The position numbers were made by a program, and so were the translations under genes. A stretch of DNA of 55,479 nucleotides from Nitrosospira sp. (GTDB taxonomy: Bacteria > Pseudomonadota > Gammaproteobacteria > Burkholderiales > Nitrosomonadaceae): positions 1 to 55,479 of the forward strand of contig JACDSH010000001.1 of assembly GCA_013450215.1 (NCBI GenBank). Direction: 5' to 3'. Shown here piece after piece: positions 49,012 through 50,378 of the stretch (position 1 is the stretch's first letter; each line of letters opens with the position of its first letter). The notes beneath the pieces were generated by a model. It did not search any database, was not told the origin of the DNA, and saw nothing but the letters and a program-made list of their open reading frames with translations.

Positions 49012-49085
49012 TGGAGCGGGTGAAGGGAATCGAACCCTCGTCGTAAGCTTGGGAAGCTTCTGCTCTGCCATTGAGCTACACCCGC
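49012..49085 (-). tRNA. tRNA-Gly (anticodon CCC)
   Basis: The minus strand gives acceptor GCGGGTG/CACCCGC with encoded CCA, a D arm GCTC/GAGC, anticodon loop TTCCCAA (CCC) and T arm GAGGG-TTCGATT-CCCTT. It reads GGG codons. Position 27-43 is a G.A mismatch. Its promoter lies at 49096-49124. Confidence 0.95.
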
Positions 49086-49095
49086 AATTGTCCTG

Positions 49096-49124
49096 ATTCT
49101 ACTTGCGTTAGAGGGATTACTCAA
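49096..49124 (-). promoter_or_regulatory. promoter of tRNA-Gly in the left arm
   Basis: On the minus strand TTGAGT (49119-49124), a 17-base spacer and TAGAAT (49096-49101) form a sigma-70 promoter whose start point would be near 49088, just before the tRNA 5' end at 49085. Confidence 0.65.
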
Positions 49125-49251
49125 TTGTTTGCCGATCGACTCAGGCTAGCAAGAAATATAATAGTGTTCGTAGATATTTTTCTAATTTCTTATGTGACTG
49201 TGAGGTTAGCTTTTTGTATGCTCGGATTATCGTTTGTCTCTAATACTGTCA

Positions 49252-49280
49252 TTGAGTAATACGGGCAACGCAAGTAGAAT
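49252..49280 (+). promoter_or_regulatory. promoter of thiS-thiG-trmB in the right arm
   Basis: TTGAGT (49252-49257), a 17-base spacer and TAGAAT (49275-49280) repeat the tRNA-Gly promoter in the opposite direction. A start near 49287 would give a leader of about 58 bases before thiS. No TPP riboswitch is visible in that leader. Confidence 0.6.
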
Positions 49281-49344
49281 CCCTAATTCTGTGTATTTAA
49301 ATTGTGCAGATGTTAAAAGCCCACACAAGTCCCAATGCATTCAG

Positions 49345-49545
49345 ATGCAAGTGATACTCAACGGACAGCCACAACGTTTTGATACCCCGCTAAATGTTGT
49401 TCAATTGCTTGAGTATATGGCCTTGCAGGGTAAGCGAATTGCGGTCGAGCGCAATGGAGAGATTGTTCCTCGCAGTCAATTTGGAGAGCAGGTGCTGGCA
49501 GATGGCGACCGACTTGAGATCGTCGTGGCAGTGGGTGGTGGTTAA
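49345..49545 (+). CDS. thiS: ThiS, sulfur carrier protein
   Basis: ThiS is a ubiquitin-like carrier whose C-terminal thiocarboxylate donates sulfur to the thiazole ring of thiamine. The 66-residue protein has MQVILNGQPQRF, NVVQLLEYM, RIAVERNGEIVPRSQF and the required C-terminal Gly-Gly. The start at 49345 matches the family; the open frame extends 37 codons upstream into the inverted-repeat element without similarity. No clear ribosome-binding site is seen. thiG follows after 29 bases. Confidence 0.95.
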   Translation: MQVILNGQPQRFDTPLNVVQLLEYMALQGKRIAVERNGEIVPRSQFGEQVLADGDRLEIVVAVGGG

Positions 49546-49574: not shown

Positions 49575-50378
49575 ATGGATAACCTGATTATCGCCGGCAA
49601 GACGTATTCCTCTCGACTGCTGGTCGGTACCGGAAAATACAAAGACTTTGATGAGACGCGTGCGTCGATAGACGCGAGTGGGGCACAAATCATTACCATA
49701 GCAATCCGTCGCACTAATATCGGCCAGAATCCCGGTGAGCCAAACCTGTTGGATATACTGCCCCCCTCTCAATACACATTATTACCTAATACCGCCGGCT
49801 GCTTCACAGTCGACGATGCGGTCCGTACGTTAAGGCTTGCACGTGAATTACTCGATGGCCATAGCTTAGTGAAGTTGGAAGTGCTCGGGGATCCGAAGAC
49901 ACTCTTCCCTAACATGGTTGAAACCCTTAAGGCTGCAGAAATCCTGGTGAAGGAAAATTTCCAGGTGATGGTTTATACCTCTGATGATCCAATCCTGGCT
50001 CGGCAACTAGAGGAGATTGGCTGCGTTGCCGTGATGCCGCTGGCATCGTTGATTGGTTCGGGCATGGGCATTTTAAATCCATGGAATCTACAGATCATCA
50101 TAGATAATGCTAAGGTACCGGTGATCGTGGATGCGGGTGTAGGTACGGCTTCGGATGCGGCCATCGCCATGGAGATTGGCTGCGACGGGGTGCTGATGAA
50201 CACCGCCATTGCTGCTGCTCAGAGGCCCATACTGATGGCTTCTGCCATGAAAAAAGGGGTGGAGGCCGGGCGGGAGGCTTATCTGGCCGGTCGTATGGCG
50301 AAGAAGCTCTACAGCGCGAGCCCGAGTTCACCCGTCACTGGCGTCATCAGCAGCAGCAGCAAAGATCAATCGGCCTAA
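49575..50378 (+). CDS. thiG: ThiG, thiazole synthase
   Basis: ThiG condenses deoxyxylulose phosphate, ThiS thiocarboxylate and dehydroglycine into the thiazole phosphate. The 267-residue TIM barrel has [21 protein letters not shown], the Schiff-base K100 in LVKLEVLGD, and [13 protein letters not shown] and [13 protein letters not shown] Ser-rich tail ends it. The partner genes thiC, thiE, thiO/thiH and thiF are not in the window. Confidence 0.98.

What the first reader, a model, noticed from the sequence alone, without database searches (positions are those of the whole stretch)
49095..49281. Twin inverted promoters between tRNA-Gly(CCC) and thiS, or a MITE with outward promoters
Two 31-base inverted arms match at 25 positions. 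Both contain TTGAGT-N17-TAGAAT; the left copy faces tRNA-Gly and the right copy faces thiS-thiG-trmB. All six mismatches fall together in the spacer between -35 and -10, where promoters tolerate change. The AT-rich interior has no gene, and CCT flanks both ends like a 3-base target duplication. Either a small mobile element supplied promoters to a tRNA and a vitamin operon, or a promoter was copied in reverse.
Basis: partly seen in the sequence, partly recalled or inferred. Interest (0 to 1): 0.65.

Follow-up and report, generated by a model that had tools for sequence, protein, structure and literature searches.

The report
Copied tRNA promoter beside variable slot
Two mirror-image promoters between a tRNA gene and a vitamin gene look like one tRNA promoter that was copied in reverse long ago; relatives keep both copies but carry different accessory genes, some defence-like, between them.

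Summary
The inverted arms are real: 26 of 31 matches (not 25); 0 of 1000 shuffles reach this. They are not a dispersed MITE. In the 9 held genomes of the genus (Nitrosomonadaceae MAGs) full arms sit only here, two per genome in 8; in the ninth the contig ends inside the locus. The 3-base 'target duplication' holds in 1 of 8 genomes.

The better reading is 'a promoter was copied in reverse'. The tRNA-facing arm is of a tRNA-Gly(CCC) promoter type found in 9 of 249 other order genomes. The thiS-facing arm is its inverted copy. In relative G007 it is still followed, at the tRNA's 9-nt spacing, by a decayed tRNA-Gly 5' half; in the others this is weak. The thiS promoter element common outside, TGnTARAAT, is absent.

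The 125 bp between the arms is an accessory-gene slot, empty here. Five relatives carry different cargo (NYN, SIR2-like, DUF2971/PDC-S31, unknowns), all on one strand; it differs between species with 94% identical mutY. Arms are no more alike within genomes than between, so selection rather than recombination probably keeps them. Promoter activity is inferred.

The parts
49012..49085 (-). tRNA-Gly(CCC) gene
   Evidence: ARAGORN; Rfam RF00005
49095..49125 (-). tRNA-side arm = tRNA-Gly promoter; -35 TTGAGT 49124-49119, -10 TAGAAT 49101-49096; ends 9 nt before the tRNA
   Evidence: same promoter type before tRNA-Gly(CCC) in 9 further genomes of the order
49126..49250 (.). interior between the arms: the accessory-gene slot, without cargo in this genome
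   Evidence: No cargo gene recognised; a 62-aa TTG-start ORF at 49071-49259 overlaps it and runs into the tRNA. The orthologous slot holds cargo in 5 of 9 genus genomes
49251..49281 (+). thiS-side arm = inverted copy of the tRNA-Gly promoter; -35 TTGAGT 49252-49257, -10 TAGAAT 49275-49280
   Evidence: present in 8 of 8 genus genomes whose contig reaches thiS
49291..49343 (+). putative decayed remnant of the copied tRNA-Gly, now thiS 5' leader (weak here, 0.0765 of shuffles reach its score; clear in relative G007)
49345..49545 (+). thiS (66 aa, sulfur carrier of thiazole synthesis). The open frame extends upstream to a TTG at 49234, across the right arm; the ATG start is taken because relatives match from there
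49575..50378 (+). thiG, downstream of thiS
   Evidence: ORF; name recalled, not searched

Best explanation
At the base of this Nitrosomonadaceae genus the tRNA-Gly(CCC) gene with its promoter was duplicated in inverted orientation between itself and thiS. The copied tRNA decayed. Its sigma-70-type promoter was kept and most likely now drives thiS-thiG, in place of the thiS promoter type seen in other families. The stretch between the two outward-facing promoters became a slot in which accessory, partly defence-like, genes are gained, swapped and lost; in the window's species it is empty. SHOWN by sequence: the arms, their orthology and uniqueness, their constraint, the tRNA remnant in G007, the cargo differences. 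INFERRED: promoter activity of both arms, transcription of thiS from the copy, that the duplication predates the genus, and the route by which cargo changes (most likely recombination in the shared flanks, since no recombinase is recognised among the cargo proteins scanned).
For: Full arms occur only at this locus, in 9 of 9 genus genomes and 0 of 52 others. 24 of 31 positions are invariant over 17 arms, while 640 bp of adjacent mutY DNA are 74-76% identical between the two clades. Identity is left-left 0.900, right-right 0.950, left-right within genome 0.871, left-right between genomes 0.885: each arm evolves on its own. The tRNA-side promoter type recurs before tRNA-Gly(CCC) in 9 genomes of 5 other families; spacer letters that the pattern left open are shared by most, so the tRNA side is taken as the source. 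In G007 the thiS-side arm runs on into 41 nt that align to tRNA-Gly bases 1-43, at the same 9-nt spacing: 0 of 2000 shuffles and 0 of 300 over the whole intergenic region on both strands. A TGnTARAAT type element lies before thiS in 15 of 20 genomes outside genera g1 and g2, 0 of 8 in g1 and 0 of 10 in g2. Slot cargo: NYN, unknown 469 aa, DUF2971 plus a 136-aa protein, three unknowns, SIR2-like, without significant similarity to one another (best E 0.27); PADLOC hits for three of the five loci; the two cargo proteins tested are each in 1 of 9 genus genomes.
Against: The tRNA remnant is strong only in G007. In the other 7 genomes with a thiS side, 0.0035 to 0.099 of shuffles reach the score under lenient scoring, and none stands out under stricter scoring over the whole region (44 to 264 of 300 shuffles reach it, and the best match lies elsewhere); G007 alone could have received it later. 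The remnant is inverted, whereas tRNA fragments in G023 and G050 are direct, so the duplication route is unclear. Genus g2 also lacks the TGnTARAAT element without having a tRNA-promoter copy, so its absence does not by itself point to the copy; no shuffle control was run for that motif. The reversed-pattern control gave 4 hits in 250 genomes against 10, and the genus differs from most of the nine at two further spacer positions where they agree. No transcript data exist. The window's own slot has no cargo.
Confidence: 0.72

Rival explanations
1. Two promoters that were never copies of each other converged because both are bound by the same regulator or need the same strong sigma-70 sequence.
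For: All 17 arms are under strong constraint, and the same tRNA-Gly promoter type is found in other families, so this sequence is clearly favoured.
Against: The shared letters include spacer positions in all genomes, bases just inside the arms (CAAACG) in G001, G003, G006 and G007, and 8 of 9 leader bases in G008, though the small-genome clade shares neither of the last two. Twin similarity exceeds all 200 shuffles in 8 of 8 genus loci with both arms and in none of the non-genus loci tested (0 of 15, 0 of 8; G050 is in both). G007 keeps tRNA sequence after the thiS-side arm.
Confidence: 0.13
2. The arms are terminal inverted repeats of a MITE or small transposon that brought outward promoters.
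For: Inverted arms, AT-rich interior, CCT on both sides in the window; variable content between the arms in relatives.
Against: One locus per genome and no second full copy (exact-match scans); flanking triplet shared in 1 of 8 genomes; no transposase recognised in the 8 cargo proteins scanned; in several genomes conserved sequence continues about 70-110 bp inside the arms, so content does not change at the arm edges.
Confidence: 0.05
3. The arms are recombination sites (inversion or cassette exchange by a recombinase acting from elsewhere).
For: Different cargo lies between the same two repeats.
Against: All 8 cargo genes counted face the same way; arms keep side-specific letters (TAAAAT on the tRNA side, TAGAAT on the thiS side in 5 of 5 large-genome species with both arms), so inversion through them is not seen; exchange edges lie inside the arms and on the tRNA side differ between G007 and G002, G003, G006.
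Confidence: 0.06

Closest known systems
Core-gene-flanked defence hotspots (cDHS1 and cDHS2 of Pseudomonas aeruginosa; PMC10250203, passages seen)
   Same: Core genes and a tRNA or tmRNA flank a slot with accessory genes, several defence-like, not tied to one mobile element; exchange through conserved flanks is proposed there too.
   Different: Here the slot is tiny (125 bp to about 2 kb, none to three genes counted), bounded by two inverted copies of a tRNA promoter, with a shared leader of about 110 bp before the cargo in 4 genomes.
tRNA-gene integration sites with tRNA fragments at the far end (recalled; a Williams 2002 title was seen only as a reference line)
   Same: A partial tRNA-Gly lies at the far end of inserted DNA (G007, G050).
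   Different: In G007 the partial tRNA is the 5' half, inverted, with its promoter, and no integrase is recognised among the cargo proteins scanned. Direct 5' fragments occur in G023 and G050.
Paired divergent sigma-70 promoters (recalled)
   Same: Two outward promoters serve two divergent genes.
   Different: The two are copies of one promoter with a gene slot between them.

Membership tests
MITE / terminal-inverted-repeat element | several copies in the genome or in relatives | tested here: not met
   One locus per genome; exact-match scans of two collections show no other locus
MITE / terminal-inverted-repeat element | target-site duplication | tested here: not met
   Flanking triplets equal in 1 of 8 genomes, the window's own (outer bases)
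MITE / terminal-inverted-repeat element | empty sites in close relatives | tested here: not met
   9 of 9 genus genomes have an arm at the locus, 8 of them both
sigma-70 promoter pair | -35 and -10 hexamers at 16-18 nt, conserved | tested here: met
   TTGAGT-N17-TARAAT in 17 of 17 arms; 9 of 12 consensus letters
sigma-70 promoter pair | transcription starts downstream of each arm | not testable with these tools
   No transcript data
Core defence hotspot | conserved core genes on both sides | tested here: met
   tRNA-Gly and thiS bound the slot in 8 of 9 genus genomes; the G002 contig ends before thiS. The gene before tRNA-Gly is called mutY from recalled knowledge
Core defence hotspot | different defence genes in different genomes | tested here: inconclusive
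   3 of 5 cargo loci hit PADLOC models, but as single proteins; no function tested
tRNA-derived duplicate | recognisable tRNA sequence in register behind the copied promoter | tested here: inconclusive
   Clear in G007; weak in the 7 others with a thiS side

The most novel reading that the evidence does not exclude
A tRNA promoter duplication turned a tight tRNA/thiS divergent pair into a lasting docking slot: each housekeeping gene got its own near-identical outward promoter, so foreign defence-like genes can be swapped in between, behind a shared leader, without harming either neighbour. The twin promoters are kept because they insulate the slot.
Probability: 0.25. Interest if true: 0.68.

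Novelty: new variant of a known kind. Interest (0 to 1): 0.5.

Why it matters
If true, it shows how a biosynthetic operon can take over the promoter of a dying tRNA duplicate, and how the same event can open a small, stable gene-exchange slot in freshwater ammonia oxidisers; related streamlined genomes are reported to carry few transposases (PMC9239080, passage). It gives a compact place to look for single-gene defence systems in these mostly uncultured bacteria. That thiS might follow tRNA-like growth control becomes testable.

Tried and rejected
MITE/TIR reading: rejected on copy number, orthology and flanking triplets. Rfam element or riboswitch between the arms or before thiS: none; in the window only the tRNA and a sub-threshold match on its antisense strand, in eight relatives only tRNAs. 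Plasmid copies of the 205-bp region: none. Concerted evolution of the arms: not seen. Other copies of the promoter in the window genome: the 15-base core AACGCAAGTARAATC has 4 further places with 1-2 mismatches, as many as its reversed control (4); TTGAGT-N17-TARAATC has 9 further places, each with one mismatch, control 0. ARAGORN finds no tRNA in the 3-kb loci of these 13 places, so the motif is no general tRNA promoter here. A T-arm-like hairpin in the leader was looked at by eye and dropped. Promoter scan of G007's slot region: 2 sites, both arms, against 1.9 expected. Weak further matches to leader and tail (17-38 bases, E 0.006-0.09, in 7 and 2 genomes outside the genus) were taken as chance. 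Paper searches: one search listed 2 unrelated papers, none, one search listed 10 of 265, none by title on a tRNA promoter copied to a neighbouring operon; one search is uninformative because 'thiS' matched the word 'this'. Searches gave context papers.

Rows dropped or not tested: two ORFs of 50-51 aa in the G006 slot, one on each strand, are left out of the cargo count; 8 non-genus loci with under 170 bp between tRNA and thiS were not given the twin-promoter test; G002 has no thiS side in its contig, so g1 thiS-side counts are of 8, not 9; the start of a further G002 gene at the contig end was not scanned. In one search the outgroup G033 did not align (0.38-0.41), so I use identities only, not the tree. 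The 7 loci added had been selected by their tRNA promoter, all 7 have TGnTARAAT; of the 13 not so selected 8 do. Shuffles keep base composition only; the inverted-repeat test keeps dinucleotides.

Full report
Observation. It has 26 matches, not 25, and the five mismatches lie together in the spacer. 1000 dinucleotide shuffles of 49086-49344 reached at most 23 matches. Both arms carry TTGAGT-N17-TAGAAT, facing tRNA-Gly(CCC) and thiS. The hexamers match the sigma-70 consensus at 9 of 12 positions; a count of such sites alone is not far above shuffles (3 against 1.0, sd 0.9; in G007 2 against 1.9).

Where else it occurs. A pattern for the arm with up to 3 mismatches was found in 9 of 61 genomes (the window genome, 8 of the same genus, 52 others): all 9 of the genus and none of the 52; a second form gave the same 9 of 9. 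Each genus genome has two copies facing outward at this locus, except G002, with one, whose contig ends inside the slot. An exact-pattern scan of GTDB species genomes gave 9 stretches from 8 records, titled Nitrosomonadaceae, Nitrosospira, Nitrosovibrio, Nitrosomonadales or uncultured proteobacterium; their contig lengths equal those of G001-G008 at this locus, so they name the same eight genomes rather than add new ones. IMG/VR had no exact match, PLSDB none by blastn. The window genome (1.61 Mb, completeness 99.82%) falls in the size range of the streamlined Great Lakes Nitrosospira of PMC9239080 (1.45-1.68 Mb, passages seen); that it belongs to that group is inference.

Not a mobile element. 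The three bases outside the arms agree in 1 of 8 genomes (outer bases). The 205-bp region has no second copy in its genome beyond a 14-base match at E 3.5. No transposase is recognised among eight cargo proteins from relatives. The 9 genus genomes have the arm or arms at the same place.

The tRNA side as source. TTGAGT-N17-TARAATC-N9-GCGGGTG, with up to 2 mismatches, was found in 10 of 250 genomes drawn from the order, in 6 of 121 genera, the window genome being one; the reversed pattern gave 4 hits. In the other nine, all of other families (5 families), the hit precedes a tRNA-Gly(CCC) gene, and thiS lies within the fetched 3 kb in eight. Spacer letters that the pattern left open are shared by most of the nine: A at position 1 in 8, T at 3 in 7, A, A, C at 10-12 in 9, 9 and 8. 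The genus has these letters too, but differs at positions 13 and 16, where 8 of the nine have C. One of the nine (G237) is a poor match apart from the -10 box. In 0 of 8 of these loci with thiS does the region before thiS resemble the tRNA promoter more than every shuffle does, and in 0 of 15 non-genus loci tested (ties with the best shuffle in two and one), while 8 of 8 genus loci with both arms exceed every shuffle.

A decayed tRNA behind the thiS-side arm. In G007 the thiS-side arm is followed, after the same 9 bases as at the real tRNA, by 41 nt that align to tRNA-Gly bases 1-43 (GCGAGTGTAGCTCAATATTAG...): 0 of 2000 shuffles of the downstream stretch reach the lenient score, and 0 of 300 the stricter score over the whole intergenic region on both strands. 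Under the lenient scoring the shares of shuffles reaching the score in the other 7 genomes are 0.0035 (G004), 0.0085 (G001), 0.0085 (G008), 0.0235 (G005), 0.0665 (G003), 0.0765 (G000, the window) and 0.099 (G006); these genomes are related, so the values do not add up freely. Under the strict scoring none of them stands out, and their best match lies elsewhere in the gap. I read this as one duplication at the base of the genus, best preserved in G007; a later event in G007 alone is not excluded. Direct-orientation tRNA-Gly 5' fragments sit before thiS in G023 (another genus of the family) and G050 (another family), each 0 of 300 shuffles (G050 1 of 200).

What thiS has elsewhere. An extended -10 type element (TG, none or one base, TARAAT) lies 42-63 nt upstream of thiS in 15 of 20 genomes outside genera g1 and g2; in 0 of 10 of g2 and 0 of 8 of g1 (no shuffle control). 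By eye, most g2 genomes show a TATAAT-type box before thiS instead. So in g1 the copied tRNA promoter is the obvious candidate for driving thiS, but g2 shows that this element can be missing for other reasons. That the element is ancestral is inference.

Constraint without conversion. Over 17 arms, 24 of 31 positions are invariant; mean identity is 0.900 among tRNA-side arms, 0.950 among thiS-side arms, 0.871 between the two arms of one genome, 0.885 between arms of different genomes. If the arms were being recombined with each other, the within-genome value should be the higher. The adjacent 640 bp, read as mutY, are only 74-76% identical between the small-genome clade (G000, G004, G005) and the other six, so the arms are strongly constrained.

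The slot. Between the arms: G000, G004, G005 125 bp; G008 184; G001 755; G007 1305; G003 1342; G006 1994; G002 at least 1.7 kb. Five genomes carry genes there: G001 NYN domain (Pfam E 2.9e-25), G002 a 469-aa protein without Pfam match, G003 DUF2971 (E 2e-07) plus a 136-aa protein with a sub-threshold zinc-ribbon match, G006 three proteins without Pfam match, G007 a SIR2-like protein (E 0.00078, below Pfam's cut-off). No two of the eight are similar (best blastp E between different proteins 0.27). PADLOC models match three of these five loci: HEC-09 and NYN, PDC-S31 (E 6.5e-35) and SIR2 (E 3.1e-12). All eight genes counted lie on the strand of tRNA-Gly; two ORFs of 50-51 aa in G006, one on each strand, were not counted. 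The slot is AT-richer than the mutY side in these five (0.44-0.50 against 0.57-0.63 G+C), but so is the cargo-free slot of G008 (0.45 against 0.57). The 469-aa and SIR2-like proteins are each found in 1 of 9 genus genomes, several of which are incomplete; the other six were not searched. Plasmid relatives are distant: 42% in Cohnella, 48% over 72% of the length in Pseudomonas, 33% in Gemmatirosa. G002 and G008 are 94% identical in the mutY stretch, yet only G002 has cargo.

How cargo changes. A leader of about 110 bp next to the thiS-side arm is shared by G001, G003, G006 and G007 (80-84% identity to G006) and ends close to the different cargo start codons, 112-131 bp from the arm; the other five genus genomes have no match to it. 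On the tRNA side 65-100 bp are shared by G002, G003, G006, G007 and G008, the last two over a shorter stretch; G001 and the small-genome clade have no match. Each matching genome has one match. The edges of variation thus lie inside the arms and are not the same everywhere, which fits recombination in shared flanks better than a site-specific enzyme. This is inference.

Known relatives of the idea. Core defence hotspots in P. aeruginosa are likewise bounded by core genes and a tRNA or tmRNA, and exchange through conserved flanks is proposed there (PMC10250203, passages). The twin tRNA-promoter frame, the tRNA remnant and the small size are what differ. Searches for prior reports of such a promoter copy showed none among the titles listed, in an open-access library only.

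Noticed in passing
L105 (G050), L095 (G023): Direct-orientation tRNA-Gly 5' fragments lie just before thiS, in another family and another genus; they suggest that this tRNA/thiS junction has been opened more than once.
   Followed up: partly
L097 (G027), L098 (G030), L103 (G041), L105 (G050), L106 (G051), L107 (G057): Outside the genus the tRNA-Gly/thiS gap also holds about 1.3-6 kb of different DNA with ORFs in these genomes; one ORF in L106 begins like a TIR domain with WD repeats (recognised by eye, not searched).
   Followed up: partly
L165, L167-L174: A tRNA-Gly(CCC) promoter type with 9 nt to the tRNA and shared spacer letters recurs across families of the order (the 9 nt were part of the pattern); why spacer letters are shared is unexplained.
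   Followed up: partly
L034 1490-1600 and relatives: A conserved leader of about 110 bp precedes unlike cargo genes in four genomes; its promoter or RNA role is unknown.
   Followed up: partly
L032 (G002), contig end: The contig ends inside the slot after the 469-aa gene, so the full cargo of this species is unknown.
   Followed up: no
window 49155-49184, minus strand: A third promoter-like site (TAGAAA-N18-TATATT) lies inside the cargo-free slot; it may be a relic of a lost cargo promoter or chance.
   Followed up: no
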